From a virus, in IMG/VR virus record IMGVR_UViG_3300023174_000067, positions 62,001 through 126,000 of that record: a stretch of DNA of 64,000 nucleotides. One strand, written 5' to 3'. Below, piece after piece: positions 19,723 to 38,003 of this stretch (positions are counted from its first letter, which is position 1; each line of letters opens with the position of its first letter). Below the pieces are notes generated by a model. That model did not search any database and was not told the DNA's origin. It was given only the letters and a program-made list of their open reading frames with translations. The translations under genes and the position numbers were made by a program.

Positions 19723-20358
19723 TTATTTTTGAAAGTATTTCTCAATTCTTTTACTTAATCTAACTCTTGGGTCATTTATTGTTCTACCAACATCTTCATA
19801 TTTTAACACAAACCCAAAACTTAAAAAAACTCTTCTTGAATTAAATTCATTTGTCCAATGTTTATATAGAGATGCTTCAAACCCATATAAATCGGATTCT
19901 TGTATTTTAACCGACTCTTTATCCACATAAAAATCATAATCTTCTGACAATACACTGATGTTACATTTATAATTAACATATCCATCTATTGATGCGTCAT
20001 AATGGGGATTTATTTTTCCTCCTTTATTCATATCAACAGCTTGAAGAAAAACATTATCTTTTGGAAAATTAAATTCTTCTGAGATTCTATCTATTATGTT
20101 AAAAATAAAAGAGGGCAAACCCTCTTTTGATACATCAGATATTGATTGGAATTTTGTAATATAATTTGTTAAAGGTGTATTTGAAATATCAAACATACAA
20201 GATTTACCCTTTAATACTTTGGATAATTCTGTGAGATGGTAATTACTATCATCACCCGTATGATTAACAGAATCTAACCAATTTATTATTTGGTTTGCCT
20301 CATCTTGTGTGATGAAATTTTTTTTTATCTTACAAGTTTCCAAATCCGTATTTACCAA
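19723..20358 (-). CDS. 2-oxoglutarate/Fe(II)-dependent oxygenase-like protein
   Basis: The protein has 211 residues. The double-stranded beta-helix signature is visible: INPHYDAS gives His119 and Asp121 (HxD iron ligands), YKHWTNEF gives His167 as the third ligand, and NSRRVFLSFGFV gives an Arg (175 or 176) to hold 2-oxoglutarate. Such enzymes hydroxylate protein or small-molecule substrates. The spacing H...N...RRVxLSF suggests a protein or peptide hydroxylase type, but the subfamily cannot be fixed by eye. It lies among fibre genes and in the same strand block as a GT60-type transferase, so hydroxylation of Pro-rich fibre proteins is an attractive but unproven role. A stable hairpin is embedded in its coding sequence (20107-20128). 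Confidence 0.7.
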   Translation of the reverse strand: MVNTDLETCKIKKNFITQDEANQIINWLDSVNHTGDDSNYHLTELSKVLKGKSCMFDISNTPLTNYITKFQSISDVSKEGLPSFIFNIIDRISEEFNFPKDNVFLQAVDMNKGGKINPHYDASIDGYVNYKCNISVLSEDYDFYVDKESVKIQESDLYGFEASLYKHWTNEFNSRRVFLSFGFVLKYEDVGRTINDPRVRLSKRIEKYFQK

Positions 20359-20596
20359 TTTTCTTTAGATTATGTTTTGTTAAAAATTCACTTGGGTTCA
20401 TAGCTTCAATTATTGTTAATTCGGCAGAATCCATAAGTTGTTTAGCCTTTTCTTCGGTTACTGCCATCACACATAATTTATGCGTCGCAGGTAATTCTCC
20501 AGTTGGTGATAAATCTATTTTTAATATATTATCATTTTTCATTTTTTCTCTTGCTCGAAGAACTTTAGATTCTTCACATAATATACAAATTCTCAT
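20330..20596 (-). CDS. small protein of unknown function upstream of the oxygenase
   Basis: This 88-residue protein overlaps the oxygenase gene by 29 nt in another frame, so the two are likely translationally coupled. It reads MRICILCEESKVLRAREKM, then a two-strand/helix pattern (KLCVMAVTEEKAKQLMDSA) and ends KIGKYGFGNL. The CxxC near the N-terminus (Cys4, Cys7) could bind metal but the pair is incomplete. It may be an accessory or partner of the oxygenase. I do not recognise a family. Confidence 0.6.
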   Translation of the reverse strand: MRICILCEESKVLRAREKMKNDNILKIDLSPTGELPATHKLCVMAVTEEKAKQLMDSAELTIIEAMNPSEFLTKHNLKKIGKYGFGNL

Positions 20597-20614
20597 AATT
20601 GTTATTTTTTAATT

Positions 20615-21691
20615 TTAATCGATTGGTAAACCCGATAAATAATCGCCAGTTATATCATACCATTGGTCATTCCATACATATTTCATAACTTTATCAACAA
20701 CAACATAAGACTCATATTGTGTTGTACCCGTACTAACATCGCTATTAATAAAAATACCACTTAAAAAATATACATCATTTTCTGTATTTGCGGTTGTTGC
20801 AGCTGGTAAATTTGCAATAATATAATCATACGCAGAATCCCTAATAGTTTCTGTGGCAAATATCATTTGTTTATTATAGATTTCTTCAGAAGTACCTGTA
20901 AAACCTGTTAAGGTTGATTTATACGGCCATAAAATATCAGTTAATTTCCAAAAAGAATAATTTTCATTATCAAATGGTGGATTACTTTGACTCGGCGCTT
21001 CAGTTAATACATTCGCAACTTGGTTAATCGCACCCCATACTGCACCACAAGTATTATCTGTTGTGCTATCAGATTTACCTCTTCTTAACATTCTACCTGA
21101 ACGACCATCTTCAGTAACACCAATGTGTGGCATACTTGTCACAAATAAAGTTCCACCAAGTGTTGTTGCTACGTGACTTGCAAAAGCTCCAAAACCAACA
21201 CTACCAACAAATGGATATCCTGCTAAACCACCCGATTGAAATGGTCCTAAAAATGAATTAATACTATTTGGCCAACCACCAATATTTGCTTGTACTTTTG
21301 GTGCATCAACATCATCAGAACAAATACCTTGAGCATAAACAATATCCGTTGATGGTATACCTTCATTTGTAATATACTCCGTTGTATATGTTCCCCACAC
21401 TTCAGATAATACCGCACCTGAGAATGGTTGAGCACCTCCGTCAACGGTAATATTTCTTACAGTTTCAGTATATGCAGTTTGTCCTGTTAATGGCGTTGGG
21501 ACGGTTATTTCATATGTTTTATCATATTCCACGACAGTTAATTCATAAGTACCGTATGGATAATCACTAATATTGTTAAATGGTATTGTTTGTACCCCTA
21601 AATCAATTGTACCTCCTGTTGAGGGTGAAAAAGTCACATCGGCAGTTTTACCCGATAAATTTGTGCTTGTTATTCTAATTCCTTGTATCAT
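20615..21691 (-). CDS. virion-type protein with LCIB-like beta-carbonic anhydrase domain
   Basis: Residues 1-85 form a small beta-rich domain as in neighbouring fibre proteins. Residues about 95-345 resemble the LCIB/C family (limiting-CO2-inducible beta-carbonic anhydrases). The visible matches are GICSDDVD (Cys124, Asp126), GPFQSGGLAGYPFVGSVGFG, AFASHV (His173), SMPHIGVTEDGRSGRMLRRG and NTCGAVWGAI (Cys215). Cys, His and Cys are the expected zinc ligands. The Arg that normally pairs with the Asp after the first Cys is not where I expect it (sequence DAPK), so activity is uncertain. LCIB proteins interconvert CO2 and bicarbonate. A copy in a fibre operon could be enzymatic, a binding fold, or a repurposed scaffold. 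Confidence 0.6.
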   Translation of the reverse strand: MIQGIRITSTNLSGKTADVTFSPSTGGTIDLGVQTIPFNNISDYPYGTYELTVVEYDKTYEITVPTPLTGQTAYTETVRNITVDGGAQPFSGAVLSEVWGTYTTEYITNEGIPSTDIVYAQGICSDDVDAPKVQANIGGWPNSINSFLGPFQSGGLAGYPFVGSVGFGAFASHVATTLGGTLFVTSMPHIGVTEDGRSGRMLRRGKSDSTTDNTCGAVWGAINQVANVLTEAPSQSNPPFDNENYSFWKLTDILWPYKSTLTGFTGTSEEIYNKQMIFATETIRDSAYDYIIANLPAATTANTENDVYFLSGIFINSDVSTGTTQYESYVVVDKVMKYVWNDQWYDITGDYLSGLPID

Positions 21692-21716
21692 TTTTTTTGT
21701 TTTTATTTTTTATTTA

Positions 21717-23864: not shown

Positions 23865-23882
23865 CGTTTTTCTATTTTATTT

Positions 23883-23889
23883 ATAAATA
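23883..23889 (-). promoter_or_regulatory. TATTTAT element before solenoid fibre gene
   Basis: GATATTTATAAATAA on the minus strand, 18 nt before the ATG at 23864. Confidence 0.42.
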
Positions 23890-23918: not shown

Positions 23919-25514
23919 TTAACAAGTACCTGAAAATGTTAATGGGAATTGACAATCAAATGCAAACCCACCACCAGCTCCCGTAAATACGTAGGTATAC
24001 GTACCATCAGAGTTAACAACTCCTACAATACTTGTTCTACCAATATTATCAGTAATTACATCGTTTACTTGTATCTGTAAAGTTTCAGAAGTTTGAGTTA
24101 ATTTTAATGTATTACTATTAATTGATGTTGCACCATCCCATAATGTTGGTACAACAATTTGACGAACACAATTTGGAGTTAATGTTAGTGTTGGAGTTGG
24201 TGTAGGTGTAGGTGTTTGAGTTGGTGTAATAGTAGGTGTAGGTGTTGGTCCATAACAAGAGGTCACACAATCGGAATATCCTGGTTCTCCTGTTAAATCA
24301 TATGTTCCTGATGTTGCGAGTTCATCTAAAATTTCAAATGAGTATCCTCTATTTTCAGGATTGTTATAAAAATATCCAATAGTTAAAGGGGTGTTATATG
24401 GAACAAAAGCGGTAAATGTACCAGCAAAATTACAAGGATTTCCACAACTATAACCATTAACATTATAATAACGATAAGGTGGTAATGGAGATTCCGTTGG
24501 TGTTGTGGTTGGAGTTGAAGTTGGAGTTGAAGTTAAGGTTGGTGTCGGAGTTGAAGTTGGAGTTGAAGTTAAGGTTGGTGTTGGAGTTGAAGTTGATGTT
24601 AAAGTTGGTGTCGGAGTTGGTGTTGGGTCAACAAACGAAAGATAAAAATCATTATAAACATCGATATATTCATTAATATCTGTTTGTAATATTGCATCTA
24701 AAATAATTTGCTCTATTATTATATTGTCAGGATTAGTAATACTTGGAGTTAATGTTACACCTGAAAAATTTACATAACCATTTAATGTATTAAAATCAAC
24801 ATCAGGCAAATAAACATGTGTTGTTCCTGATGTATATCCACTATTAATTGTAACTCCTGTTGTTATAACAACGTCTCCATTCGATGTACCATATGTGTTT
24901 GTAAAACTTAAATTAACATCTTCGTTAACAACCCTATTACTATATAAATTATAGTCTATATTTAATGAACCTGGAGTTATTATTGTCTCTAAAGTTATTA
25001 TTATAGGTTCAGGGGTTGTTGTTGGAGTTGGAGTAGGGGTTGACGTTAATGTAGGGGTTGGAGTAGGGGTTGGTAATTGTGGACATTCAGGACACTGTGG
25101 ACAATCAGGACAAGGTGTTAAATAAGATTGGTCTGAACAACAATTTTCATCTGAGATTAAACTATCGTTAACATTAATATATAGTTTTTCTCTTATTGGG
25201 ATTATTAAATCACCCTCGTCATTTTTTAATAAAAATTGACCTTCATATCTGCCTGTTTTTTGTGTATCTTTTTTTGAAAATTTATAAAAAATATAATATT
25301 CTGTAGGAGTATTTGGGTCATCAAATACTTTAGAAACAAATCCTGCGGCTTTAGATGTTATTTTTGGAATTCCAGTTTCTACATTAACCATTGAAAAGAA
25401 GATTCCCGACTTTTCAATTAAATTCATAAAACTATGATAGTCACTCCTTCCGTCCTTAACAACTTGCATCTTAAGCACAGGTAAGGTTGCGTTTTTATTT
25501 ATAAAAAATTCCAT
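23919..25514 (-). CDS. Pro/Thr-repeat fibre protein, mucin-like
   Basis: The protein has 531 residues. Residues 1-125 are a folded N-terminal domain (MEFFINKNATLPVLKMQVV), probably for virion attachment. A Cys-rich hinge follows (CPDCPQCPECPQ), then repeated PT tracts (about 148-170, 298-345, 427-447) separating two beta-rich domains, and a C-terminal domain ending FPLTFSGTC. PT tracts form extended, rigid linkers and in other proteins are heavily O-glycosylated. It lies immediately downstream of the glycosyltransferase genes, so it is a candidate substrate. No signal peptide, as expected for a virion protein. Confidence 0.72.
   Translation of the reverse strand: MEFFINKNATLPVLKMQVVKDGRSDYHSFMNLIEKSGIFFSMVNVETGIPKITSKAAGFVSKVFDDPNTPTEYYIFYKFSKKDTQKTGRYEGQFLLKNDEGDLIIPIREKLYINVNDSLISDENCCSDQSYLTPCPDCPQCPECPQLPTPTPTPTLTSTPTPTPTTTPEPIIITLETIITPGSLNIDYNLYSNRVVNEDVNLSFTNTYGTSNGDVVITTGVTINSGYTSGTTHVYLPDVDFNTLNGYVNFSGVTLTPSITNPDNIIIEQIILDAILQTDINEYIDVYNDFYLSFVDPTPTPTPTLTSTSTPTPTLTSTPTSTPTPTLTSTPTSTPTTTPTESPLPPYRYYNVNGYSCGNPCNFAGTFTAFVPYNTPLTIGYFYNNPENRGYSFEILDELATSGTYDLTGEPGYSDCVTSCYGPTPTPTITPTQTPTPTPTPTLTLTPNCVRQIVVPTLWDGATSINSNTLKLTQTSETLQIQVNDVITDNIGRTSIVGVVNSDGTYTYVFTGAGGGFAFDCQFPLTFSGTC
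24485..24622. repeat. tandem DNA repeats encoding a PT linker
   Basis: Short units of the type GTTGGAGTTGAAGTT and GTTAAGGTTGGTGTYGGA recur in tandem. They encode TSTPTPTLTSTP-type linkers of the fibre protein. Slipped-strand changes in such units would alter linker length. Confidence 0.7.
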
Positions 25515-25527
25515 TTACTTTTTTATA

Positions 25528-25534
25528 ATAAATA
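25528..25534 (-). promoter_or_regulatory. TATTTAT element before PT-repeat fibre gene
   Basis: GGTATTTATTATAAA on the minus strand, 13 nt before the ATG at 25514. It separates the fibre gene from the transferase genes upstream. Confidence 0.42.
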
Positions 25535-25540
25535 CCACGA

Positions 25541-27223
25541 TTACGACTCTTTTCTTAAATTACCATCATAAAATTCAAAACGATTATGTTCTGTTGGGGT
25601 TAACAATAATAATCCAGGATTCAATTCTCCTTTTCGAGTGTTTTGGAACATATAAGACATCCAAGTTTGTTCAAACGGTTTATCCCATTTTTCCGTTAAA
25701 AACATTTTTTTGTTACCACTTTTACTAACTACCTGAGGCCAATTAGAATAATATACATCACCATCTATATAACCCAAACCATTATGTATTTTAATATTTT
25801 TAAAAATTGTTTTTGGAGAATCGGGGTCCGTTCCCTTTAAGGGTAAATTAGTTTTTTCAGGAAAATGAGAATTCCTAACATGTTGAGGGACGTTATACCA
25901 AGACCATTGAGTACTATTATCACCAAAAAATTCGGTAAAAGACAACTTTAAAAAATCAAATTTTTCTTTACCAATAATTGATAATGATTTTTGATATAAA
26001 TTAGAAACATATCTGTTAAATCCATTTTTACAAACCTCACCTTTTTTTGGATAAAAAAACATATCGTCCTCAAAAAAGAAATAAAAATCAAACTCATTTT
26101 CATTCGCATGTTCCGATATAAATTGTCTACCTCCACAAATACCAAGATTATCTTTTTTAATGTGAGTAAACCCATGTTTTTCACATAGTTCCAAATATTT
26201 TTCTGTTGTTGATAAATCAGAAGAATTATCTAACAAAAACTTTTTTGGTTTATTAATAAAGTCTGAATCATATTCTAACATTGATTTAATTAATGTTTCA
26301 AACTGATTTGGACTATTAAATGTTATAACATATAGTGCGGTATTTTCAGGATTTAAAAAAGAATCATCGTTTTTTATTTTTTCAGTTTCATAGTTCTTTA
26401 ATTCTTCAAAAAATGGCCAAACTAATCCATTACCACTAATATCAAACTTATGTATTAAATTAGGATGTCTGTGAGTTAATATAGTAAAAAGACATTCATC
26501 CGCACCCATATACCCATCCCTCAATGTTGTCTCCATTACTGAATAATATAAATTATTCAACTCATGTACTTTATTTTTTGAACCACCAAAAAATCCTCCT
26601 CTACAAACGTAATTGACAAAATCGGTATTACAATAACGAGACATTGCGGTTCTTTCAAACCCATGAATTTCATCATTTGCATCATATGGATATGCTAAAT
26701 GAATAAACTTACCTTCATTTTTAATTACAAAATTATTTAAATTATCTAAGACTAAATCTTTTTGAAAATATCCTTTATTTACAGTATTTGTTAACCCACC
26801 GTCAATCCAAAAGAAATATTCAGAATTAAATGGATTTACAATTGCAGAATCATTTAACATAAACATTTTGGTAAACATCATCGGATTATAATATTTTAGT
26901 GATGCTTGAGGGGATTCTTTTAACCAATCCGCAAATGAATACCATTTTTCATCAGTTCTGATTTCTTGAATTCTATCAAAAAAAGGATTCCATGTTTCAA
27001 AATCGGTAACTTCTTTTATAAAAATTTTTGTCGGTTTATTTTCTCTAATTCTTATAACATCTTCTTCCAATTCTTTTGGTATCCAAACACACATTTGAGC
27101 ATCGGTTTCTAACATTTCAAAAAACCGTTCTTTATAATAATTAAAGTCTCTTTTAGCCCACCCATTTAGGTATCCTCTTCCCATGTCCCAAAGACCAGTT
27201 ACGATTGTAATATTTTTATTCAT
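25541..27223 (-). CDS. two-domain glycosyltransferase (HtrL/YibB-like plus GT2-like)
   Basis: Residues 1-285 begin NITIVTGLWDMGRGYLNGW and include FFWIDGGLTN and VCRGGFFGGSKN. This is the pattern of HtrL/YibB-type putative glycosyltransferases. Residues about 300-560 form a second GT-A fold: ALYVITFNSPNQFETLIKSM, LDNSSD, then FFFEDDMFFYP with acidic residues where the DxD metal site is expected. Two catalytic domains in one chain suggest sequential sugar addition. It overlaps the next gene upstream (ATG of this gene at 27223, stop of that gene at 27216) by 8 nt, so they are coupled. Cytoplasmic, no membrane segment. Confidence 0.72.
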   Translation of the reverse strand: MNKNITIVTGLWDMGRGYLNGWAKRDFNYYKERFFEMLETDAQMCVWIPKELEEDVIRIRENKPTKIFIKEVTDFETWNPFFDRIQEIRTDEKWYSFADWLKESPQASLKYYNPMMFTKMFMLNDSAIVNPFNSEYFFWIDGGLTNTVNKGYFQKDLVLDNLNNFVIKNEGKFIHLAYPYDANDEIHGFERTAMSRYCNTDFVNYVCRGGFFGGSKNKVHELNNLYYSVMETTLRDGYMGADECLFTILTHRHPNLIHKFDISGNGLVWPFFEELKNYETEKIKNDDSFLNPENTALYVITFNSPNQFETLIKSMLEYDSDFINKPKKFLLDNSSDLSTTEKYLELCEKHGFTHIKKDNLGICGGRQFISEHANENEFDFYFFFEDDMFFYPKKGEVCKNGFNRYVSNLYQKSLSIIGKEKFDFLKLSFTEFFGDNSTQWSWYNVPQHVRNSHFPEKTNLPLKGTDPDSPKTIFKNIKIHNGLGYIDGDVYYSNWPQVVSKSGNKKMFLTEKWDKPFEQTWMSYMFQNTRKGELNPGLLLLTPTEHNRFEFYDGNLRKES

Positions 27224-28001
27224 ATTTTTTTACTAATTTCTTTAATAGATTAATATCTTTTTTTGTATTATGTAATATTTTTACATTATTTGTATTTAAA
27301 TAATCCTCTTCATTTTTTGAAAAATCACCTAAAAAAGATTCAACACCATTTGTAAATGTTTCATTACTTGATAAAATTTTGTAGTTAACATTATTCTCAT
27401 AAGCATATTTTGTAATAAACAACTCATCAGGAAATTTACAATAAAATCCAAATTCAGGCATTACTGTATGTGGATATAATTTATCGTGATATTCTTGTGA
27501 TAATTTATATAAATTCATAATATGATTATATCTACCCCCAAAAAAATTACCCATAGTCCAAATTGCGCCTTCAGGATAATTAACATCAATAAAGTTTGTC
27601 ATACTTGGGTATGTATCTTTAAATAATGCGTTATAAAAATGTCTCATAAACACATATTCTGAGTCTAAAATATCTTTGTCCGTTATTTCACTAACAATTA
27701 TTTGGTCAGCATCTGCAACAAATATATAATCATATTCTTCTACTAAATGTTTCAGACACAATACTTTCATAAAAAGTAAGTGTTGATACTCATTTGGATG
27801 GTGGTCCACAACAATATGTTTCACAAAATCTAAATCATGTTTACGTTCATTATTAGTTATTAAAACAAAATGAACGTCATGATTAGGTAAGAAATTTTTC
27901 TTAGCCGATTTAAAAAAAGCTTCTGATGTATCATAATAATCATTTATTAGTTGAAAATTTTTATCGGGAAAAAACAAAGAGTTAATTAATGCAATTTTCA
28001 T
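27216..28001 (-). CDS. glycosyltransferase, GT6-like
   Basis: The protein has 261 residues. KIALINSLFFP is followed by YIFVADADQIIV (DxD at about 96-98) and IWTMGNFFGGRYNHIM. KFPDELFITKYAY and YKILSSNETF complete a pattern that fits family GT6 (the ABO blood-group and alpha-galactosyltransferase family): DxD, then GxxFGG, then a DE-containing helix. GT6 enzymes transfer Gal or GalNAc to an existing galactoside with retention. Bacterial and a few phage members lack the N-terminal membrane anchor, as here. Probably extends a glycan begun by another enzyme of this block. Confidence 0.65.
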   Translation of the reverse strand: MKIALINSLFFPDKNFQLINDYYDTSEAFFKSAKKNFLPNHDVHFVLITNNERKHDLDFVKHIVVDHHPNEYQHLLFMKVLCLKHLVEEYDYIFVADADQIIVSEITDKDILDSEYVFMRHFYNALFKDTYPSMTNFIDVNYPEGAIWTMGNFFGGRYNHIMNLYKLSQEYHDKLYPHTVMPEFGFYCKFPDELFITKYAYENNVNYKILSSNETFTNGVESFLGDFSKNEEDYLNTNNVKILHNTKKDINLLKKLVKKYE

Positions 28002-28007
28002 TATATT

Positions 28008-28973
28008 TTAAAATTTAAAATTTATAGTATGTCCTTCGGTGATACCCAATTCAAGTGTTTTATTTTCATCATCAATAGGGTGAAGTGTAACAATTAAAGA
28101 TTTTTTTTGTCCGTATATTGGGTCACCACCCATGGTTTCATTATTAACATTAAATGATAAAGACAATCCATTTTTATCGTCTACTAACTTTCTTACAATA
28201 TCGGTAACATCTGAAACTACGTTTAGTGGGGTTGTACTGTAACCCTCATCAATTTCGAAAGGGGGAGTTCCATAAACAGCATTTTTTACTATTATTTTTT
28301 TTCCCTTGTATATATCAAATTTACCTTTATAAAAATCAGGATGAAGATTAGTTAGGAAAGGATTAAATTCCATATGATAAAATTCGTAGTTTGTAGATTG
28401 TGGATTATCTCTATTTAACCAAGCTTCATAATCCCATCTACCCCAAATTCCTACATCAGAACATTTTTTAATGTGTTTAGATTGAGACCACCAAAAATTA
28501 CCCCAATACCATCCACCATTACAACTAACACCAACATTGTCATATTCATTAAGTTTCTCAACACATTCTCTCCAATTATCAATTAAAAAATATTCCATAC
28601 ATTCTCTCCAAGATGTCACATTTTCTATTTTTTTATGAGAAGGTTCTTTTGAGTTAAATGTTGTCCAATTATTACTAACACCTTTTGTGTGAAAATAAAA
28701 TATCTTAGCATCATCATATTTTTCACCAATCTCTTTTACTTTTTTTATACCAGGATATTCCGCATGATTTTGTTCGTGAAATTCTAGTCTAATCTTAGAG
28801 TAATCATTTAAATAATTTTTAACCTCTTCTCTATCAACATTTGATAAATTAATTGTTAACCATATCTCATCTGAATTATCATATAACCCAGAATTAACCA
28901 TTCTATCTAACTGTTTTTTAATTAAGTCTTTCCATTGACCTACTAAATATGCGTGATACACTACTACTATCAT
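28008..28973 (-). CDS. putative glycosyltransferase with C-terminal beta domain
   Basis: The N-terminal ~215 residues (IVVVYHAYLVGQWKDLI, KIFYFHTKGVSNNW, SWRECMEYFLIDNW) have the look of a GT-A-like family in which FHTKG and the Trp-rich GVSCNGGWYWGNFWW are conserved. I could not find a clean DxD. From about residue 225 (KIIVKNAVYGTPPFEIDEG) a beta domain follows with DVTDIVRKLV, NNETMGGDPIYGQKKSL; this resembles the DUF3395 fold found at the C-terminus of some DnaJ-like proteins. Gaps to both neighbours are under 10 nt. Sugar specificity unknown. Confidence 0.55.
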   Translation of the reverse strand: MIVVVYHAYLVGQWKDLIKKQLDRMVNSGLYDNSDEIWLTINLSNVDREEVKNYLNDYSKIRLEFHEQNHAEYPGIKKVKEIGEKYDDAKIFYFHTKGVSNNWTTFNSKEPSHKKIENVTSWRECMEYFLIDNWRECVEKLNEYDNVGVSCNGGWYWGNFWWSQSKHIKKCSDVGIWGRWDYEAWLNRDNPQSTNYEFYHMEFNPFLTNLHPDFYKGKFDIYKGKKIIVKNAVYGTPPFEIDEGYSTTPLNVVSDVTDIVRKLVDDKNGLSLSFNVNNETMGGDPIYGQKKSLIVTLHPIDDENKTLELGITEGHTINFKF

Positions 28974-28977
28974 AATA

Positions 28978-31458
28978 TTAATTTTTTTTTCTTATAACAC
29001 TGGTTACACTCCAATCAGGACTACTTTGATATATTTGAATGCTTTCAATATTTTCATTTAAGTATTCCATCTCTTCTTGGGTCATGTAGTCCGAGTAAAT
29101 TTTACCTGTTTTAATAAAATCTTGTAACATTGTTAATGTTATTGTTTTTTCTCGGTCACCCCAATTAGTCCAATGGTTTGGTTTATTCATCAACTCTATT
29201 GAAGTATGAAGGTCTTCTAAAACGTATATACCTCCTGGTTTAACACTTTTAAATAATTTTGCTAAAGTAATTTGTTGGTCTCTCATTATATGAGAACCGT
29301 CATCCATAATGACATCAACAGATGGGTATTGATTACTTAATTTAATTAAATCCTCTTCTTTTGATTGGTCTCCGTCAATAAACGTCATTCGGTGTCTTGG
29401 GGTATCTCCTAATTTGTCTAAACTATAGGGTAGGTTATATTCAACACCAACAATTTCCGCATTTATAAAATAATCTCTCCATAGTTTTATTGATTCGCAA
29501 TCGTATATACCTATTTCCATGAAAATTTTACATTCTTCGCGAATTGGTTTAAAAAGGTCGTTATATATTAATTCAAAATATCTGTGACCATGGTGTTTAT
29601 CCGTTGCATAATATTGTACAATATCTAATAATTGTTCACCTTTAGGTATTGGAATATTAAATAAATTATAATATGCCATATCGATAGTTCTATTTAATAG
29701 ATTTCCATAAGAAAAGGCGTGAAAAATAAAATTTTTATTTACGGTATCTTTAAAATATCTACCGTTTAAAACTTTATTATCAATTACTTTTATTTTATCA
29801 CTAACACCAATTTCATTTTTTAATAAGTGAGAAAAACAAGTTTGGTCGTGCCATAAACCATTTTCATAAAATCCTTTTTGTAATGGACTACCTCCTTCTA
29901 ATTCATCACACACATCATACCATCTTTGTAAAAACCATCTAACCCATTCTGTGTTTTTTATTAGTATGACGCCAGCATTCATTGCACTTGGACCATAATC
30001 TTCAGTCACAACAATATCTTTTCCTTCAATAATAAAATCTTCAATATGATAAGAATTATCAACAACAATTGCATCGGCATCTAAGAATAATACATAATCA
30101 GGAGAATGGGTATTTAACACATCAAGAAGAAGATGTGGTTTATACCAAGTAAATGCCCTTCTACCTATTTTTTCTCTAATTTTATTACCATCGTTCTCAA
30201 CATGATAAATGTAGTTTTTTTCATTACAATATTTTTCATTTATTGATTTGGTATATTTTGAATATGAAACATTATCGGTCCAAAATTGTGATAACACTAT
30301 TTTTTTATTATCATTCATTTGTTTTTTTTCTATTTTAACTTCTTGATTATTTTTTTTTGTTGTTTTAATAAAAAACCCATTTTCAGTTTTAACATATTCA
30401 TTTTGTAAATCAAAATAATTTGTTTCATTGATTATTGTCAAATAATCAAAAATTTCTGATTGGAGTTCATTCTTATCTTTATAAAAAAAGTAAATAAACC
30501 CACCATCATTAACACTATCGATATATTTGATAAATGCATTTTTTTCATGTGTTTTATTGAAATCAAATTTTGTATTGTAAAAAACTAATTCGTTTATTGA
30601 ATTTTTGGCAAATGGACATTCAGCCGTAACAGCATAGTGATTTCTGGCAACAGTACCATAATGCTCCCAATTAAACATATCTTTATCCATAGAATAAAAA
30701 ATCGGGGTTCTCACAAAATCGCTATCCCAAGTATTAACTATTAATGGAGTTCCATAGTCTAATGGATAGTTTAATATCACCTTCCTTTTTATAGGATTAT
30801 TATCATAATAATAAGAGATAATATCATCAACAAAGTATTGTCTTTTACCGTTAGTATAGTGAATAGAAAAATAATCTTCACTAACTATATATTGATGACA
30901 TAATAAATTAGATGTTTTTCTTTTGTACGGATGTTTGTCAAAAAATTTCCAAAGAGTAACATCTTCAATAAAAATATTTTCGACATTAACATCGTTAATT
31001 AAATCTTCACAAACTTTTTTTGACATGAAGACACCAGCACCTCCTCCATGAGAATGTACGACATCATATCCATTTATTTCTTCTATCATTTTATCAAGAG
31101 CGAATGAGTTAATATAAGAACCATCATCAGTTCTAAAAATATAATCAAATTCTTTATTTTTTAGACACCAATCTACCGCCTCTTTTAATCTTTCATACAT
31201 TAATGAGCCAATACCTTCATCTTTTAATGAATGATAATCATAACTTTCATTAGATATTAAATGGAGTATTTTATTTTTTTCATCATAACTTTGAGTATCG
31301 TTATTACCGTCAAAAAATATAACTTCATGACCCATTTTTTCTATTCTTGGCACCCAAGTCTCCATACAAGACATTTTACGAGTTAAGTCAGCTCTATCAA
31401 TTCTTATTCCGTGCCCATCATATTTGTGTGAGGTAAACCCCAAAAAAAGTATTTTCAT
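28978..31458 (-). CDS. three-domain glycosyltransferase/methyltransferase
   Basis: An 826-residue multidomain enzyme. Residues 1-215 hold a GT31-like domain (YIFRTDDGSYINSFALDKM). Residues about 380-600 hold a second GT-A domain with VLFLDADAIVVD and NAGVILIKNTEWVRWFLQRW, as in GT34/GT8-type transferases, and a HDQTCFSHLL helix. From about 610 a class I SAM methyltransferase follows: IFMEIGIYDCES (motif I), IDGDQSKEEDL, VDVIMDDGSHIMRDQQ (motif II region) and GGIYVLEDLH, close to cephalosporin/macrocin-type O-methyltransferases. It could add two sugars and then cap one by O-methylation. It sits in the middle of the transferase run with 4-15 nt gaps. Confidence 0.72.
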   Translation of the reverse strand: MKILFLGFTSHKYDGHGIRIDRADLTRKMSCMETWVPRIEKMGHEVIFFDGNNDTQSYDEKNKILHLISNESYDYHSLKDEGIGSLMYERLKEAVDWCLKNKEFDYIFRTDDGSYINSFALDKMIEEINGYDVVHSHGGGAGVFMSKKVCEDLINDVNVENIFIEDVTLWKFFDKHPYKRKTSNLLCHQYIVSEDYFSIHYTNGKRQYFVDDIISYYYDNNPIKRKVILNYPLDYGTPLIVNTWDSDFVRTPIFYSMDKDMFNWEHYGTVARNHYAVTAECPFAKNSINELVFYNTKFDFNKTHEKNAFIKYIDSVNDGGFIYFFYKDKNELQSEIFDYLTIINETNYFDLQNEYVKTENGFFIKTTKKNNQEVKIEKKQMNDNKKIVLSQFWTDNVSYSKYTKSINEKYCNEKNYIYHVENDGNKIREKIGRRAFTWYKPHLLLDVLNTHSPDYVLFLDADAIVVDNSYHIEDFIIEGKDIVVTEDYGPSAMNAGVILIKNTEWVRWFLQRWYDVCDELEGGSPLQKGFYENGLWHDQTCFSHLLKNEIGVSDKIKVIDNKVLNGRYFKDTVNKNFIFHAFSYGNLLNRTIDMAYYNLFNIPIPKGEQLLDIVQYYATDKHHGHRYFELIYNDLFKPIREECKIFMEIGIYDCESIKLWRDYFINAEIVGVEYNLPYSLDKLGDTPRHRMTFIDGDQSKEEDLIKLSNQYPSVDVIMDDGSHIMRDQQITLAKLFKSVKPGGIYVLEDLHTSIELMNKPNHWTNWGDREKTITLTMLQDFIKTGKIYSDYMTQEEMEYLNENIESIQIYQSSPDWSVTSVIRKKN

Positions 31459-31473
31459 ATTTGTTGTGTTATT

Positions 31474-32727
31474 TTATAGATTACCTGTTATTCTTTCACA
31501 CCACCCTTTAGATTCAGAATGTGGCCATACCACCCAGTATGATGGTTTATGAGACGTTTGAAACTCTCTCCACACTTTACAATAACCATCAGGGTCTCTC
31601 ATCATCATTTCAATTTCATTTTTATCGGCATCTTTTCTGAATATTGTTTCATCATTACTGTCATGGAATGCAACTACCCAAAAATCATAATCTTTTTCAG
31701 GTACCTGAGTATATCCAATATCAATACAATGTTTGAAGATTTTTGCGAAACTTTTTCTCCATTCATCTTCATTTTCAAAATGATATGGATTTGGTGGATA
31801 TTGTTTATCTAATGTATATTGTTGTACTGACCTATCACTAAAAAGTAATCCACAATATTTTTCATAATCCATTAAAGTTCTTTCAGTACCAAACCCATAT
31901 ATTCCAAATTCTTTTGGGTCGTATGTTTCACCGTCCATACTAAATAATCTTCTATTTTTAGAATGTGCTCTTGAATTTTTTTCACCCCAAGTTTTATCAT
32001 CATCCCACTGCTTGGTTCTACCCTTACGAGTATATTCGTGCCAAATAACTGTTTTGTGAGGATGAAATAAATCATATCCATGTGTGTAGGCTCTTGCCGC
32101 AATTGATATTTCTTCCCCATGAAAATAAAATTCAGGGTCATGTTGAACTTCTTTAGAAAATTGACCAACAGTAAAACAAAAATGTGCGGAATAAAATCTT
32201 GATGGAATTGGTTCTTTTAAATCTTGCCAACCTGGTATAGTTTCAGGTAAAAAGAACACCGCTCCCTCGGGAATAAACCTATCAAACGACATTCTCCATG
32301 GGTCCCTAATTCTCATCATTGGGTCATTATCAGGGTCAAAAGAAGAAACATATCCAGTTAATAAAGGTTTTTTATATCCTTTCTTTTGTAGTTGTTTAAT
32401 CATATCGATTAAAGTCTTATCCCAATCTTTTTCAAATCTCATATGAGAATCAATTTGTAAGGTATATTCTTCTCCTTTATATAACTGTTGTGTTAAATTT
32501 CTAGCCCAACATACCCCGTTAGATTCGTTATATGGAATATTTAAAATACTAAATCTTTTATCTTTTTCATATTCAGATAAATTATCAAACCCATCCTCAG
32601 GATGGAATTGTCTTGCAATACCTAACCTTAAATTTTTTGGGTTTTTAGCATTTTCAATCATGCTTTGAATGGTGGGGATTAATTGTGGGTCACGATAGCT
32701 AGCAATTTGTACAAATATTCTATTCAT
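31474..32727 (-). CDS. GT60-type polypeptide N-acetylglucosaminyltransferase
   Basis: The protein has 417 residues, opening IFVQIASYRDPQLIPTIQSM. Then GVCWARNLTQQLYKGEEYTL is followed by QIDSHMRFEKDWD (DSH at 93-95 in place of DxD). Next come PEGAVFFLPETIPGW, HFCFTVGQFSKEV and GEEISIAARAYTHGYDLFHP, ending with an HEYTRKGR element. This order is that of the GlcNAc family (GT60), typified by the Dictyostelium Skp1 enzyme that puts alpha-GlcNAc on a hydroxyproline, with relatives acting on Thr/Ser mucin-like domains. It would therefore start an O-glycan on protein. It lies directly next to the first PT-repeat fibre gene (stop at 32794), a likely substrate. Confidence 0.78.
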   Translation of the reverse strand: MNRIFVQIASYRDPQLIPTIQSMIENAKNPKNLRLGIARQFHPEDGFDNLSEYEKDKRFSILNIPYNESNGVCWARNLTQQLYKGEEYTLQIDSHMRFEKDWDKTLIDMIKQLQKKGYKKPLLTGYVSSFDPDNDPMMRIRDPWRMSFDRFIPEGAVFFLPETIPGWQDLKEPIPSRFYSAHFCFTVGQFSKEVQHDPEFYFHGEEISIAARAYTHGYDLFHPHKTVIWHEYTRKGRTKQWDDDKTWGEKNSRAHSKNRRLFSMDGETYDPKEFGIYGFGTERTLMDYEKYCGLLFSDRSVQQYTLDKQYPPNPYHFENEDEWRKSFAKIFKHCIDIGYTQVPEKDYDFWVVAFHDSNDETIFRKDADKNEIEMMMRDPDGYCKVWREFQTSHKPSYWVVWPHSESKGWCERITGNL

Positions 32728-32793
32728 TATATTTTTTATTTAAACTAAAAATAAAAAATATGAAATAAAAGTAGAGACTTACTTAAAAAAAAA

Positions 32794-34494
32794 TTAACAA
32801 GGACCATTAGGTTCAATAGTTACATTACCTAAAGGTATAACTGTGTCATATAAAGCACAAACACTAACTAAACCATCAAAAGATGTTATTGAACTAGATT
32901 GAGTAACCCCATTACAATCAGTATATGAATATTCTTGAGCTAATTCTTCAGTCGTACTTAAAATATATTCAAAGCAAAACACGGTTAATGTTGGTGTCGG
33001 TGTTGGGAATGGGACACATGTTGAATCTGAACAGGTACCTATTAAACTAGTTATTCCACCTTCATCATCAAGTATACCTGAAGCACAGAACGTTGTTGAG
33101 CTTGATTCGGGTATTTCAATTGTAACAGATGAACCATCTGTACAATTTGCATATGTTACAAATGACGAATCAATATATATGTTTGTGGCGTTATAACAAT
33201 TACAAATAAGCGAATTTGTTGGTGTTACTGTTGGAGTTGGTGTGGGTGTCGGAGTTTCTGTTGATGTTGGTGTTGGGGTTTGACATGGAAATAAACCAAA
33301 ACAATCGGTACAGTCGTTAAATTTAACATTAATATTACCACGATAAGTAAGAGTGGTCGAAAGTGGTATAAGTGTATATCTAGCACATCCCTCAAAATTA
33401 CCAGGTGAAGAAACATAATAAGTTGCATCTTGTTCTGCACCTGATATTGGTGACCCACTTTCAATTTGAAAAATAAATTCAATCCCTGTACAACAGGAAC
33501 TAAACCCATAAGTACCGATAGTTGTTGTTGGTGTAGGTGTTTCAGTTGGGGTAGATGTTAATGTAGGTGTTGGTGTTAATGTTGGTGTTTCAGTTGGTGT
33601 AGGTGTTGGTGTTGGGGTTAAATCATAACAAGGTCCATCAACTGTAAAAGTAATTCCTGGGTCATAACTTTCAGAACCGATAAGTATACAAAGAGTTTTA
33701 GGGCCTGTTTCCTGACTAACTACATCATCACCTCCTGTTCCATCACAAAGAGTATAATCAAAAATTAAATCATTAACGTTTGTTGTCGAAAATGTACATT
33801 GTATACAACTTACTGTAGATGTCGGTGTAGGTGTTTCAGTTGGTATTAGTTCTACTGTCGGTGTAGGTGTTTCAGTTGGTATTAGTTCTACTGTTGGTGT
33901 AGGTGTTAATGTCGGTGTAGGTGTAGGTGTTTCAGTTGGTATTAGTTCTACTGTTGGTGTAGGTGTTAATGTCGGTGTAGGTGTAGGTGTTTCAGTTGGT
34001 ATTAGTTCTACTGTCGGTGTAGGTGTAGGTGTTAATGTTGGAGTTTTAGTTGTTGTTGGAGTTCCAAAATAACATTTAGTTGTTGTTGGAGTAAGTGTTG
34101 GTGTTGGAGTTAAAGTATTTGTTGATGTAACTGTTGGAGTTGGTGTTGGGAATGTACAAGGTCTTTGAGTTCTTGTTAATGTTGGTGTATTTGTCGGAGT
34201 TAACGTTGGAGTCTCAGTTGGGGTTAGTGTAGGTGTTGAAGTTAATGTTGGGGTTGGTGTTGGGGTTGCAGTTGGTCTAGGTACATAAACAATATATGGG
34301 CAATTATCATTTGCCGCTAGTATATCATATTGACCATATATTTCTAATTCAGGATTAATCGTGCTACTATCAAAGAAATAAGGAATTTCAACTTCACCTA
34401 ATTCATAAAATAAATCTGAAATATCGGGTTTAAATACGACATTTACGTATTGAAAAAGATAATTATAACTTGATATTACTATTTGTTGATTCAT
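32794..34494 (-). CDS. Pro/Thr-repeat fibre protein, mucin-like
   Basis: A 566-residue protein. The first ~70 residues are a folded N-terminal domain (MNQQIVISSYNYLFQYVNVV). From about 72 to 232 it is almost continuous PT repeat (units such as TPTPTLTPTPTVELIPTE), then three compact Cys-containing beta domains separated by shorter PT linkers. It ends with NVTIEPNGPC. Each domain carries paired Cys, unusual for a cytoplasmically made protein, so disulfides may form in the mature virion. Upstream, the large protease-tipped fibre gene ends 5 nt before its start, so the two are coupled. Candidate substrate of the GT60 enzyme next to it. Confidence 0.72.
   Translation of the reverse strand: MNQQIVISSYNYLFQYVNVVFKPDISDLFYELGEVEIPYFFDSSTINPELEIYGQYDILAANDNCPYIVYVPRPTATPTPTPTLTSTPTLTPTETPTLTPTNTPTLTRTQRPCTFPTPTPTVTSTNTLTPTPTLTPTTTKCYFGTPTTTKTPTLTPTPTPTVELIPTETPTPTPTLTPTPTVELIPTETPTPTPTLTPTPTVELIPTETPTPTVELIPTETPTPTSTVSCIQCTFSTTNVNDLIFDYTLCDGTGGDDVVSQETGPKTLCILIGSESYDPGITFTVDGPCYDLTPTPTPTPTETPTLTPTPTLTSTPTETPTPTTTIGTYGFSSCCTGIEFIFQIESGSPISGAEQDATYYVSSPGNFEGCARYTLIPLSTTLTYRGNINVKFNDCTDCFGLFPCQTPTPTSTETPTPTPTPTVTPTNSLICNCYNATNIYIDSSFVTYANCTDGSSVTIEIPESSSTTFCASGILDDEGGITSLIGTCSDSTCVPFPTPTPTLTVFCFEYILSTTEELAQEYSYTDCNGVTQSSSITSFDGLVSVCALYDTVIPLGNVTIEPNGPC
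33823..34030. repeat. 60-bp tandem repeat in fibre gene
   Basis: Bases 33901-33960 and 33961-34020 are the same 60-nt unit with one difference (T/C at unit position 54). A 36-nt partial unit precedes them from about 33840. The unit encodes one PT-linker repeat of ~20 residues. Near-identity suggests recent duplication and ongoing length change. Confidence 0.85.
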
Positions 34495-34499
34495 TTCTA

Positions 34500-37400
34500 T
34501 TAAAAATTATTTTCTATTGCTAAACAAATTTCACCGTTTTCAAATATTAATCTTGACATGTCATCAAATGATATAAATGCATGTCCTCCGACACCCCAAC
34601 TTTGTCCCCAACTATTTTTTATTCTGAAGAGTTTATTAACCGTATCAACACCATTTATTACATACGCATGACCTCCTGCTAAATATCCTGATATCTTTAT
34701 TAATCCGTTTATATTTGGATAAAACATACTATAATACCAATTGGTACCAACAACCACAGGTCCTAAAGTTAGTACGGTATTTATTAAAGTGTTTACATCA
34801 AACGCCCAATAATATGATGATATTTTAGATATATTTTGAAGATATCTAGCACCCGCTCTAACTGATGTACCATCATATGATTCTCCAGGCCAAGCATCTA
34901 TTTTTTGAGCCTCACTATATATTAAATCAGGAGAAACGACAGGATGAACCCCAGAATGAATAATCGGTCCGTCTTCAATCCAATGAGTCCAAGCGTACCC
35001 TACACATTTTGGACTATTACCTTGGTCTCCCCACCAAATATTATCTTGCCAATATTTTGATGTTGGTAGTTGTGGTTTTGTTAAAGTTGGTGTAGGAGTT
35101 GGAGTCTTAGTTGGAGTAGGCGTTGGTGTTGGTGTTTTAGTTTTTGTTGGGGTTGGTGTTGGTAATATTACTTTAGTTTTGGTTGGAGTTGGTGATAAAG
35201 AACTTTTAGTTAATGTTGGTGTTTTGGTTTTTGTTGGTGTAGGTGTTGGTGGTACTCTATTTATTTTTGATTTAATATGTTCGTAATGGTCGGAAATTAA
35301 ATAATTTTTATCTCTCTCATCTATAGATATTTTTCTACCTAATTTATTTTTAGTTTGACCAATATATATCGGGTCTATTATTTCGTAAGTGAAATCATCA
35401 GGTAAACAACAATTAGGACAGTCATAGCTGAATAAATTAAATTTATCTTTTAATAATAAAAAGTTATGTTTTATTTCATCCGCGCTAAGAGGTTCGGTGT
35501 ACATTCTAAATTGAGATATACCTCCGTCAAATGAACCGCCAAAATTTTGTTCAATAATTATATTTGTTTTTAATTCAGAATATGAACTACCACTTAAAAT
35601 ATTATTTGGTAAACATTCAGGGTCCTGTTGATAAGTTAAACCTGTTAATGATGTTGGACATCCAGTAAAAGTTAAGTTGTTATGTAATCCCTGCGTACCC
35701 CCACCCCAAGAGATATTAAACGGAACCCCGACTTGTTTTTCTTTATCCGTGTTTAAAGCTCTTGGTATTATTTCTTCAATATTTTCAAAAGTGTGAAATA
35801 TTCTACCATTAACATAAATTTTTAATTTACCACTTCTATAATTTTTTTCATCTAACCACTTTTGATTTAAATTAACTAATTCAATTTGACCAGGTACTTT
35901 ACATCCATTTGTTGTTGGGGGAATAACAAGGTTAACCGAATTTCCCGCTAAAGAATCTAAATATTCAAACTTTGTTATATCTCCTAAACCACCATTATAC
36001 CATAACTCACATTTGTCAAACCAAGTATATCGTTCCCAAACAAAGTCTAATTGAATCCAATGCTCTAAACTTAAAAATCCAGGACTTCCAATCTCAACAC
36101 AAAAGTCATATATACTATTTGGAGTACATAAATTATCAACAGTATATCCTGTTGTGTAGGTAATTCCTGTAGTTGGACAACTTCCAGTTGTTACGCAATC
36201 ACCTGTAAATCTTAATATTCTAACACCAATTTGTGGATTCGTTGGGTCACCACAAAGTTTAAATGCAATTACATTCGACATTGCGTCAAATAATGGGTCA
36301 GTTTCACATGTATTTTCAATAGAACCTGTTCCATCACCGCAACTATCACAAGTATTACATGTTGTAGTACAAGTATTACAATTACTAGTGCAATCACTAG
36401 TTGTTGTGGTTGTGGTCACATTAGATTCAAGACAAGAGTGTGGTTTACATTCCCATCCACATATTGGTATTGGTTCACAACCACATGAACAAGTGTCACC
36501 TGTTTTTCCAATATATCCACTATCATTACAAATTGTACAACCATAATTTAAATGTGGGTCATGTATACCACCTTCAGAATTTGGAGGATAAACATATATA
36601 CATCTTGAATTTGTAACTTCATAATTACAACAAGCACAAGTTTCTAAACAAGTTAAACCACTAGTTACTCTAGGTATTCCCCAATTAGGTGAAATACCCG
36701 ATAAATTATCAGTTGATTCTCCTTCATTATATTGATAAGGACATGGAGAGGAAAATAACATATCATTATAACAAACAGGGTCATTTATAAATGTACCACC
36801 ACTATATTCATTCCATAGTGTTGTTGCGGAACTATCTAAAGTCACCGTAATATCGTCAACTAACTCACCATCACCTTTAGTCCCAGCAATAATAGTTGGT
36901 TGTCCCTTAGGGCTTATTAATAACATTCCAACATCACCCGCATAAGTGTGATAATAATTACTTAAAGTTAAACCAACATTAGTTATTGTGCTAGTTAAAC
37001 CTGAAACCGTAAATGTTATTGGAAAAACGGATGCGGGACCATAACTTGGTATTGTTATATTATTTTGATTTGATGAAAAAATATGACAACCGTTTGAATC
37101 ACATATTGTTAAACTTAAAGAGTCTATTGACCCACTATCTCCACCATAAAAATCCTGAACATAAAATTCCCATGTACCATTTAATCCCAAATCCCCATTA
37201 ATCGGAAGTGTACCATCGGAATGATGGTAAAATTTATTTTCGGCTCTAGTACCAAAATAAAAGAAAATATCTTTATTATTAGGATAAAAATTATTTAATC
37301 GTGTTTCGCCAGGATTTAATGGAAATTCATCACTAAACCTTGGTTTTATTAACATCTCAACTGACCAACCTTTATTTACTCTATCAGGAAATAATTCATA

Positions 37401-38003
37401 GTCATATCCAAATAATTTATAAAATCCTTGATAAAATCCCCCATATAATTCATGATAATTTCCAACGTTACCATCTTGTTTAGATACAATATCAAATAAC
37501 ATTCTATCTGTTAATGTTTCAAATTGTTTGTTTGGGGTCCATGTATAACCTGTAATTTGGTGTAATTTTAATCTTCTATCAAAAAATAATCTTTCAAATT
37601 TAACTAAATCAGGTAACAACCCTTGTGTAAAAACTATTGTTTCTCCAGTCATTTGGTCGACAAGACCATTGTCAATACCTGTTAATCCAATATCACAAGA
37701 TGTCTGAGCACTATAACAATATAAATCATCGTTATTTGGGTTATATACATTTAATGATATAAGATTATTATCAGGATTATATTCTTCATATTCTAGTTTC
37801 CACATAGGATTACTATCAGGATTATTTAAATCAAAACTAAAAGGTAATTTATTACCATCTTCTTGACCTATTATTAATCTTGAAAAAATTACCTCATCTT
37901 TATAATCTCTTTCATCGGATGCCAATGAAAAATCCTGAATATCTGATTTATCAATTAGATACCATTTATTAAAATTGTATTGATTTATATTTTGATATGC
38001 CAT
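34500..38003 (-). CDS. large tail fibre with LamG-like, P-like and papain-like protease domains
   Basis: The protein has 1167 residues. A LamG-like region seems to start near 210 (KGWSVEMLIKPRF) and resume near 590-880 (HWIQLDFVWER, LKIYVNGRIFHTF), interrupted by a P-domain-like segment at 274-403 and a Cys-rich stretch to about 560. PT linkers fill about 920-985. The last ~180 residues form a C1A papain-like protease: Gln994 and Cys1000 (DQGNSPKCVGYAW, spacing 6 as in papain), His1112 (GGHAYVINGVD) and Asn1130 (IKNSWGQSWGVGGHAF). Papain-type enzymes cleave peptide bonds by thiol attack. On a fibre tip it might digest host surface proteins or mature the fibre. The catalytic triad is complete. 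Confidence 0.8.
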   Translation of the reverse strand: MAYQNINQYNFNKWYLIDKSDIQDFSLASDERDYKDEVIFSRLIIGQEDGNKLPFSFDLNNPDSNPMWKLEYEEYNPDNNLISLNVYNPNNDDLYCYSAQTSCDIGLTGIDNGLVDQMTGETIVFTQGLLPDLVKFERLFFDRRLKLHQITGYTWTPNKQFETLTDRMLFDIVSKQDGNVGNYHELYGGFYQGFYKLFGYDYELFPDRVNKGWSVEMLIKPRFSDEFPLNPGETRLNNFYPNNKDIFFYFGTRAENKFYHHSDGTLPINGDLGLNGTWEFYVQDFYGGDSGSIDSLSLTICDSNGCHIFSSNQNNITIPSYGPASVFPITFTVSGLTSTITNVGLTLSNYYHTYAGDVGMLLISPKGQPTIIAGTKGDGELVDDITVTLDSSATTLWNEYSGGTFINDPVCYNDMLFSSPCPYQYNEGESTDNLSGISPNWGIPRVTSGLTCLETCACCNYEVTNSRCIYVYPPNSEGGIHDPHLNYGCTICNDSGYIGKTGDTCSCGCEPIPICGWECKPHSCLESNVTTTTTTSDCTSNCNTCTTTCNTCDSCGDGTGSIENTCETDPLFDAMSNVIAFKLCGDPTNPQIGVRILRFTGDCVTTGSCPTTGITYTTGYTVDNLCTPNSIYDFCVEIGSPGFLSLEHWIQLDFVWERYTWFDKCELWYNGGLGDITKFEYLDSLAGNSVNLVIPPTTNGCKVPGQIELVNLNQKWLDEKNYRSGKLKIYVNGRIFHTFENIEEIIPRALNTDKEKQVGVPFNISWGGGTQGLHNNLTFTGCPTSLTGLTYQQDPECLPNNILSGSSYSELKTNIIIEQNFGGSFDGGISQFRMYTEPLSADEIKHNFLLLKDKFNLFSYDCPNCCLPDDFTYEIIDPIYIGQTKNKLGRKISIDERDKNYLISDHYEHIKSKINRVPPTPTPTKTKTPTLTKSSLSPTPTKTKVILPTPTPTKTKTPTPTPTPTKTPTPTPTLTKPQLPTSKYWQDNIWWGDQGNSPKCVGYAWTHWIEDGPIIHSGVHPVVSPDLIYSEAQKIDAWPGESYDGTSVRAGARYLQNISKISSYYWAFDVNTLINTVLTLGPVVVGTNWYYSMFYPNINGLIKISGYLAGGHAYVINGVDTVNKLFRIKNSWGQSWGVGGHAFISFDDMSRLIFENGEICLAIENNF

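What the first reader, a model, noticed from the sequence alone, without database searches (positions are those of the whole stretch)
19723..38003. Candidate phage system for O-glycosylating its own mucin-like fibres
On one strand lie three fibre genes with long Pro/Thr repeats (23919, 32794, 34500), a GT60-type transferase (31474), four more transferase genes directly after it and a 2OG-Fe(II) oxygenase (19723). GT60 enzymes are known to put GlcNAc on hydroxyproline or Thr of proteins; in Dictyostelium Skp1 a prolyl hydroxylase acts first, then GT60, then chain-extending transferases. The same logical order is present here next to repeat-rich substrates. The sugar genes sit directly between the PT-repeat genes. 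I infer that the phage decorates its fibres with a made-to-order glycan, perhaps to resist proteases, tune binding or hide from defence. I do not know of this full set being described in a phage.
Basis: partly seen in the sequence, partly recalled or inferred. Interest (0 to 1): 0.88.

Follow-up and report, generated by a model that had tools for sequence, protein, structure and literature searches.

The report
Phage module for mucin-like O-glycosylation
A large phage carries a conserved block of sugar-transferring genes whose first enzyme resembles those that start mucin glycosylation, and this block consistently sits beside genes for proteins with long proline-threonine repeats, so the phage probably coats those proteins with its own custom sugars.

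Summary
On the minus strand are three proteins with Pro/Thr tracts, a true GT60-family enzyme (PF11397, E 8e-72) and four sugar genes after it. The 19723 protein folds as a 2OG-Fe(II) oxygenase, although no family library recognises it.

Comparison with relatives supports half of the interpretation strongly. GT60 relatives are common in IMG/VR (371 found). In 36 non-redundant loci the layout repeats: PT-repeat gene(s), GT60, 1-8 variable genes, an HtrL/GT gene, often another PT gene. PT genes occur at 10 per 100 kb there versus 0.1-0.4 in control contigs. Oxygenase-anchored records with GT60 have PT tracts in 16 of 16 cases, those without in 7 of 23. The predicted GT60 fold is closest in the PDB to polypeptide GalNAc-transferases, the mucin-initiating enzymes. 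Some bacterial relatives also sit beside P/T/S-repeat proteins. The cultured jumbo phage XacN1, whose ORF334 is this GT60, was reported to have at least two glycoproteins.

The Skp1-like hydroxylase step is not supported: only 2 of 28 large GT60 records carry the oxygenase, and many oxygenase phages have neither GT60 nor PT tracts.

Best reading: mucin-type O-glycosylation of Thr in PT tracts, with a swappable glycan cassette. The chemistry is untested.

The parts
31474..32727 (-). GT60-family glycosyltransferase (PF11397), proposed initiating polypeptide O-GlcNAc/HexNAc transferase; no membrane segment; DxH motif (D93-S94-H95) at 32443-32451
   Evidence: Pfam E 8e-72; PHROG 24687; D93/H95 invariant in 35 relatives; AF2 pLDDT 92, nearest PDB folds polypeptide GalNAc-transferases; max KD19 0.62
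28978..31458 (-). variable-cassette gene: N-terminal region without family, GT34/DUF273 domain, C-terminal methyltransferase
   Evidence: PF05637 E 9e-13, PF03314; phrog_21658 methyltransferase E 6e-24
28008..28973 (-). variable-cassette gene of no known family; transferase role inferred from position only
   Evidence: no significant Pfam/PHROG/NCBIfam match
27216..28001 (-). variable-cassette gene, weak GT6-like glycosyltransferase
   Evidence: PF03414 E 5e-4, below cut-off; phrog_3317 glycosyltransferase E 1e-6
25541..27223 (-). constant last gene of the cassette: HtrL_YibB domain (res 4-259) plus conserved C-terminal GT-like domain (res 288-560)
   Evidence: PF09612 E 3e-17; relative downstream of GT60 in 32 of 36 non-redundant loci; C-terminal half 64% identical to a Neisseriaceae gene next to GT60
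34500..38003 (-). PT-repeat protein; PT tract res 917-985 (35049-35255), then papain-like C1 peptidase domain
   Evidence: PF00112 E 3e-4 and PF01483 weak, phrog_16701 peptidase E 1e-51
32794..34494 (-). PT-repeat protein directly upstream of GT60; tracts at 34192-34299, 33850-34050, 33526-33642, 33205-33303
23919..25514 (-). PT-repeat protein directly after the HtrL gene; tracts at 24990-25097, 24471-24629, 24165-24269
19723..20358 (-). 2OG-Fe(II) oxygenase family protein; probably NOT an obligatory part of the module, substrate unknown
   Evidence: H119xD121...H167...R175/176 invariant; AF2 pLDDT 88; PDB nearest AlkB/ABH2, then PHD2/P4H; present in 2 of 28 large GT60 records

Best explanation
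The stretch 23919-38003 is a phage-encoded, cytoplasmic, mucin-type O-glycosylation module. GT60 puts the first sugar (by family, probably alpha-GlcNAc; another HexNAc is possible) directly on threonines of the Pro/Thr tracts of neighbouring, probably virion-associated, proteins. The variable genes behind it (here a GT34-methyltransferase, an unassigned gene and a GT6-like gene) lengthen and decorate the chain, and the constant HtrL/GT gene adds a shared step. Because GT60 and HtrL are constant while 1-8 genes between them change from phage to phage, each phage makes its own glycan on a common type of acceptor. Shown: the genes, the conserved layout, the co-occurrence of GT60 with PT tracts and with HtrL, the predicted fold, absence of membrane segments. 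Inferred: sugar identity, Thr as acceptor, PT proteins as the substrate, their place in the virion, and the benefit (protease resistance, stiff extended stalks, altered adsorption, or shielding). The oxygenase is left out of the core.
For: Layout: PT gene directly upstream of GT60 in 20 of 33 non-redundant loci versus 32 of 262 other genes in the same loci (Fisher 3e-9), directly after HtrL in 11 of 27 (5e-4), 0 of 145 genes inside the cassette; all 63 PT ORFs on GT60's strand. Whole records: oxygenase-anchored 16/16 PT+ with GT60 versus 7/23 without (7e-6; still p 0.003 after collapsing to 16 lineages), PT-anchored 14/30 with GT60 versus 0/32 arbitrary records. HtrL: 21/25 GT60+ records versus 0/22 GT60-. 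Cassette genes match GT2, GT34, GT10, GT7, GT11, sugar-type methyltransferases, carbamoyltransferase. Fold nearest polypeptide GalNAc-transferases, which have a DxH motif. Outside phages: Jiulongibacter PT-repeat protein between two GT60 genes, Saprospiraceae P/T/S-repeat T9SS protein next to GT60-HtrL, Burkholderiales GT60 directly after a fimbrial adhesin. Cultured phage XacN1 has GT60 (ORF334), carbamoyltransferase, HtrL and PT-repeat proteins, and at least two glycoproteins were reported for it (PMC5852040). A GT60 enzyme is known to modify Thr of mucins (PMC3769586; PMC6939170).
Against: No glycan has been measured on any PT-repeat protein here; which XacN1 proteins were glycosylated could not be read. 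GT60 loci are largely one phage lineage (polB beside the module), so the co-occurrences are not fully independent. 16 of 30 PT-anchored records lack GT60, so PT tracts exist without it. TM-scores to GalNAc-transferases are modest (about 0.45-0.5) and there is no sequence match in the PDB. One cassette gene (28008) has no family. HtrL's C-terminal domain is faintly similar to DNA-sugar transferases.
Confidence: 0.64

Rival explanations
1. PT tracts are only flexible linkers common in this phage lineage, and GT60 modifies some other virion protein.
For: PT tracts occur in 16 of 30 PT-anchored records without GT60; GT60 phages are largely one lineage; 47 of 58 PT proteins share modular domains.
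Against: Association survives collapsing to lineages, reappears in distant jumbo phages and in bacteria; PT genes flank the cassette but never lie inside it.
Confidence: 0.17
2. Skp1-like pathway: the oxygenase hydroxylates prolines of the PT tracts, GT60 glycosylates hydroxyproline, the other enzymes extend the chain.
For: GT60 includes the hydroxyproline-specific Gnt1 (PMC6939170); the 19723 protein is a 2OG-Fe(II) fold with prolyl hydroxylases among its PDB matches; in L077 a relative lies directly upstream of GT60.
Against: Oxygenase in only 2 of 28 large GT60 records and in 4 of 80 GT60 flanks; 16 oxygenase records have neither GT60 nor PT; top PDB matches are AlkB enzymes.
Confidence: 0.07
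3. The sugar genes modify the phage DNA: a TET/AlkB-like oxygenase plus DNA glycosyltransferases, as in T4-like and TET-carrying phages.
For: HtrL C-terminal domain weakly similar to TET-associated glycosyltransferase (E 0.028) and to beta-glucosyl-HMC-alpha-glucosyltransferase (E 0.0014); oxygenase nearest AlkB.
Against: Oxygenase does not track with GT60; GT60 fold is that of polypeptide glycosyltransferases; bacterial relatives sit beside secreted adhesins and repeat proteins; link to PT genes unexplained.
Confidence: 0.06
4. The cluster alters host surface polysaccharide (receptor masking or superinfection exclusion) and the PT genes are merely neighbours.
For: Variable sugar cassettes with fucosyl-, methyl- and carbamoyltransferases also occur in O-antigen and capsule loci; other phages convert serotype (own knowledge).
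Against: No membrane segments in any cassette protein of the window; GT60 belongs to a protein-glycosylating family; PT association in phages and in Bacteroidota.
Confidence: 0.06

Closest known systems
Trypanosoma cruzi mucin initiation by GT60 pp-alpha-GlcNAcT (TcOGNT-2; PMC3769586)
   Same: GT60 family; Thr-dominated repeat acceptors; first sugar extended by further transferases into strain-specific glycans
   Different: the T. cruzi step takes place in the Golgi; here the enzyme is soluble, phage-encoded and clustered with its presumed acceptors; sugar unproven
Dictyostelium/Toxoplasma Skp1 pathway (PhyA, Gnt1 and chain-extending transferases; PMC6939170)
   Same: cytoplasmic GT60 plus chain-extending transferases; an oxygenase in the window
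   Different: oxygenase not linked to GT60 across relatives; acceptor is a long repeat tract, not one site
Animal and apicomplexan polypeptide GalNAc-transferases (GT27)
   Same: nearest solved folds; DxH motif; mucin-like acceptors
   Different: no sequence-level match, no ricin lectin domain found
Glycoproteins of jumbo phage XacN1 (PMC5852040)
   Same: ORF334 is a 47% identical GT60 relative in a GT60-carbamoyltransferase-HtrL cluster; at least two glycoproteins reported
   Different: the main text does not link it to PT repeats or describe the module; no tail fibres were seen in that phage
O-glycosylated capsids and tails of mycobacteriophages (own knowledge; phage-encoded transferases)
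   Same: phage enzymes put O-glycans on the phage's own structural proteins
   Different: different hosts and enzymes as far as recalled; not compared here

Membership tests
GT60 / PF11397 | profile match over curated cut-off | tested here: met
   243 bits versus cut-off 21
GT60 / PF11397 | metal-binding DxH-type motif in a GT-A fold | tested here: met
   D93-S94-H95: D93 and H95 invariant, S94 at 90% or more in 35 relatives; GT-A-like model
GT60 / PF11397 | UDP-GlcNAc:polypeptide transferase activity | not testable with these tools
   no assay
Polypeptide GalNAc-transferase (GT27) | sequence homology to GT27 | tested here: not met
   hmmsearch of A3 against PDB chains gave none; only PF11397 matched
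Polypeptide GalNAc-transferase (GT27) | overall catalytic fold | tested here: met
   the 40 best Foldseek matches are all polypeptide GalNAc-transferases, E 5e-11 to 1.4e-8, TM about 0.41-0.51; works like, not member of
Skp1-type hydroxyproline pathway | 2OG-Fe(II) oxygenase fold and catalytic triad | tested here: met
Skp1-type hydroxyproline pathway | hydroxylase accompanies GT60 | tested here: not met
   2 of 28 large GT60 records
Skp1-type hydroxyproline pathway | prolyl 4-hydroxylase family membership | tested here: not met
   no Pfam, PHROG or NCBIfam match; nearest fold AlkB
Mucin-type O-glycosylation system | initiator, extension enzymes and Pro/Thr-rich repeat acceptor encoded together | tested here: met
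Mucin-type O-glycosylation system | O-glycan present on the repeats | not testable with these tools
   XacN1 glycoproteins reported but not mapped in the text held
TET/AlkB-type phage DNA glycosylation | Tet_JBP or AlkB family oxygenase coupled to DNA glycosyltransferase | tested here: not met
   no family match for 19723; only a weak TAGT hint in the HtrL C-terminus

The most novel reading that the evidence does not exclude
A widespread phage mucin system: a constant soluble GT60 initiator and a constant HtrL/GT enzyme bracket an exchangeable cassette, so related phages display different O-glycans on Pro/Thr stalks of virion proteins, a phage counterpart of serotypes. Cellular bacteria have borrowed or donated the same GT60-HtrL pair for exported repeat proteins, fimbrial adhesins and type VI secretion loci.
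Probability: 0.45. Interest if true: 0.85.

Novelty: new variant of a known kind. Interest (0 to 1): 0.74.

Why it matters
Glycosylated phage virion proteins are known in few cases and their enzymes and acceptors are mostly undefined. This module names an initiator, an acceptor type and a swappable extension cassette in hundreds of environmental phages, and it has cultured relatives (XacN1, RAS14, CM1) in which it can be tested at once. If true, it offers a prokaryotic mucin-type O-glycosylation system that works in the cytoplasm, useful for making defined mucin-like glycoproteins in bacteria, and a new layer of phage surface diversity.

Tried and rejected
Apparent PT ORFs next to GT60 in Bacteroidia L603 and Gemmatimonadota L615 were set aside because longer opposite-strand ORFs overlap them. 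The idea that PT proteins are unrelated outside their tracts failed: 47 of 58 fall in one linked cluster of modular proteins. The polB-anchored contrast (35/40 versus 3/10) is weak because the negatives are mostly fragments. NCBIfam gave only YibB, far below its cut-off. PDB sequence search with GT60 gave only chance matches to T7-type RNA polymerases or none. Searching papers for HtrL/YibB with phage, and for proline-threonine repeats of phages, gave nothing relevant. A Bacteroidia survey showed GT60 is rare in cellular genomes (one strong match in 395, and that was the genome it was centred on), so a larger bacterial replicate was not possible.

Full report
What is there. The window is part (62001-126000) of a 134.6-kb virus record. 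Around the finding the genes run on the minus strand: two PT-repeat proteins (34500-38003, 32794-34494), GT60 (31474-32727), four genes (28978, 28008, 27216, 25541), a third PT-repeat protein (23919-25514), and further down the oxygenase (19723-20358). GT60 is a strong PF11397 member and belongs to a phage family in PHROGs. The four following genes are a GT34-methyltransferase fusion, an unassigned protein, a weak GT6-like protein and an HtrL_YibB protein with a second GT-like domain. PT tracts are dominated by Thr and Pro with few Ser (48 T/8 S, 68 T/4 S, 25 T/4 S). In the related loci they are written with mixed synonymous codons, much as outside the tracts, which argues for upkeep of the amino-acid sequence rather than DNA slippage alone, though some 60-base copies in the window are 98% alike.

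Relatives. 371 close GT60 relatives were found in IMG/VR and 80 were kept. In 52 of 77 the gene directly upstream is a PT-repeat gene, in 69 of 77 one lies in the upstream flank. After reduction to 36 loci below 95% identity the order is PT gene(s), GT60, 1-8 other genes, HtrL/GT, often another PT gene, then polB. The edges are enriched in PT genes compared with other genes of the same loci (20 of 33 and 11 of 27 versus 32 of 262), none of 145 genes within the cassette has a PT tract, and all 63 PT ORFs share GT60's strand. The 113 cassette genes match GT2, GT34, GT10, GT7, GT11, methyltransferases of rhamnosyl-O-, FkbM and other types, carbamoyltransferase and nucleotidyltransferase families, as expected of glycan extension and decoration.

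Controls. PT ORFs occur at 9.95 per 100 kb in GT60 loci and at 0.09, 0.12 and 0.37 per 100 kb in arbitrary loci. Records chosen by the oxygenase, an independent anchor: 16 with GT60, all with PT tracts; 23 without, 7 with PT tracts (Fisher 7e-6; 7/0 versus 2/7 lineages at 85% identity, p 0.003). Records chosen by PT tracts and at least 40 kb long: 14 of 30 have GT60; arbitrary records of that size: 0 of 32. HtrL is in 21 of 25 GT60 records and 0 of 22 without GT60. Limits: many records are fragments, the DNA pattern for PT misses some tracts, controls are not fully matched for G+C, and GT60 phages are mostly one lineage with polB beside the module.

Beyond this lineage. Only three isolated phages in INPHARED have GT60: XacN1, CM1 and RAS14. 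XacN1 has GT60 (ORF334), carbamoyltransferase, two further genes, HtrL, and PT-repeat proteins; RAS14 likewise has GT60, HtrL and a PT-repeat protein close by. [quoted passage not shown] Among cellular genomes GT60 is rare, but in Jiulongibacter sediminis a PT-repeat protein lies between two GT60 genes, followed by carbamoyltransferase and an FkbM-HtrL fusion. In a Saprospiraceae contig a P/T/S-repeat protein with a T9SS sorting domain lies beside GT60-HtrL. In Burkholderiales and Neisseriaceae GT60 follows a fimbrial adhesin in or beside type VI secretion genes, and a Neisseriaceae gene next to GT60 is 64% identical to the phage HtrL C-terminal domain. Relatives thus sit beside exported or surface proteins in unrelated organisms.

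Mechanism. The GT60 model (pLDDT 92) is nearest to polypeptide GalNAc-transferases (the 40 best PDB matches) although sequence search finds none. Its D93-S-H95 corresponds in kind to the DxH motif described for that family (PMC6939170). GT60 members are known to act on hydroxyproline (Gnt1; PMC6939170) or directly on Thr of mucins (TcOGNT-2; PMC3769586). None of the window's cassette proteins has a membrane segment, which suits modification of virion proteins in the cytoplasm before assembly. I therefore propose direct O-glycosylation of Thr in the PT tracts. This step is inference.

The oxygenase. It is a genuine 2OG-Fe(II) enzyme by conserved residues and fold, of a family not in the libraries. 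Nearest folds are AlkB-type, then prolyl hydroxylases, so the substrate is open. It is in 2 of 28 large GT60 records, and 16 oxygenase records, some of 180-430 kb, have neither GT60 nor PT tracts. It is most often beside other structural-type genes. It should not be counted as part of the module, though it could act in the few phages that have both.

Verdict. Confirmed observation; interpretation supported for the glycosylation of PT-repeat proteins, not for the hydroxylase-first order. New variant of a known kind (phage protein glycosylation), with a mucin-like acceptor and an exchangeable cassette that I did not find described in the papers that could be searched. The chemistry needs one virion glycoproteomics experiment.

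Noticed in passing
window 20615-21691 (-): Protein with an LCIB-type beta-carbonic-anhydrase domain (PF18599, E 3e-31) behind a ~100-aa N-terminal extension, in the structural-gene region; relatives in the flanks of 21 of 80 GT60 loci.
   Followed up: no
window 40659-54000 (+): A second block rich in glycosyltransferase, methyltransferase and nucleotide-sugar genes on the opposite strand, e.g. a double GT2 protein at 44559-46094; not tied to PT genes here.
   Followed up: no
window 34500-38003 (-): The PT tract precedes a papain-like C1 peptidase domain at the C-terminus, an unusual pairing for a presumed virion protein.
   Followed up: no
window 21717-23864 (-): 715-aa protein made largely of imperfect NNF/NNxIG repeats; relatives lie directly upstream of the oxygenase in many records.
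   Followed up: partly
L610 7530-14623, L611-L613: GT60 in Burkholderiales/Neisseriaceae follows an MrkD-like/fimbrial adhesin, with T6SS-type genes (ImpA_N, DotU, VgrG-type, RHS) around it.
   Followed up: partly
L135, L148, L149 (records G076, G078, G079): Phages with 35-41 PT pattern hits but no GT60 and, where tested, no HtrL; they may use another initiator or leave the tracts bare.
   Followed up: partly
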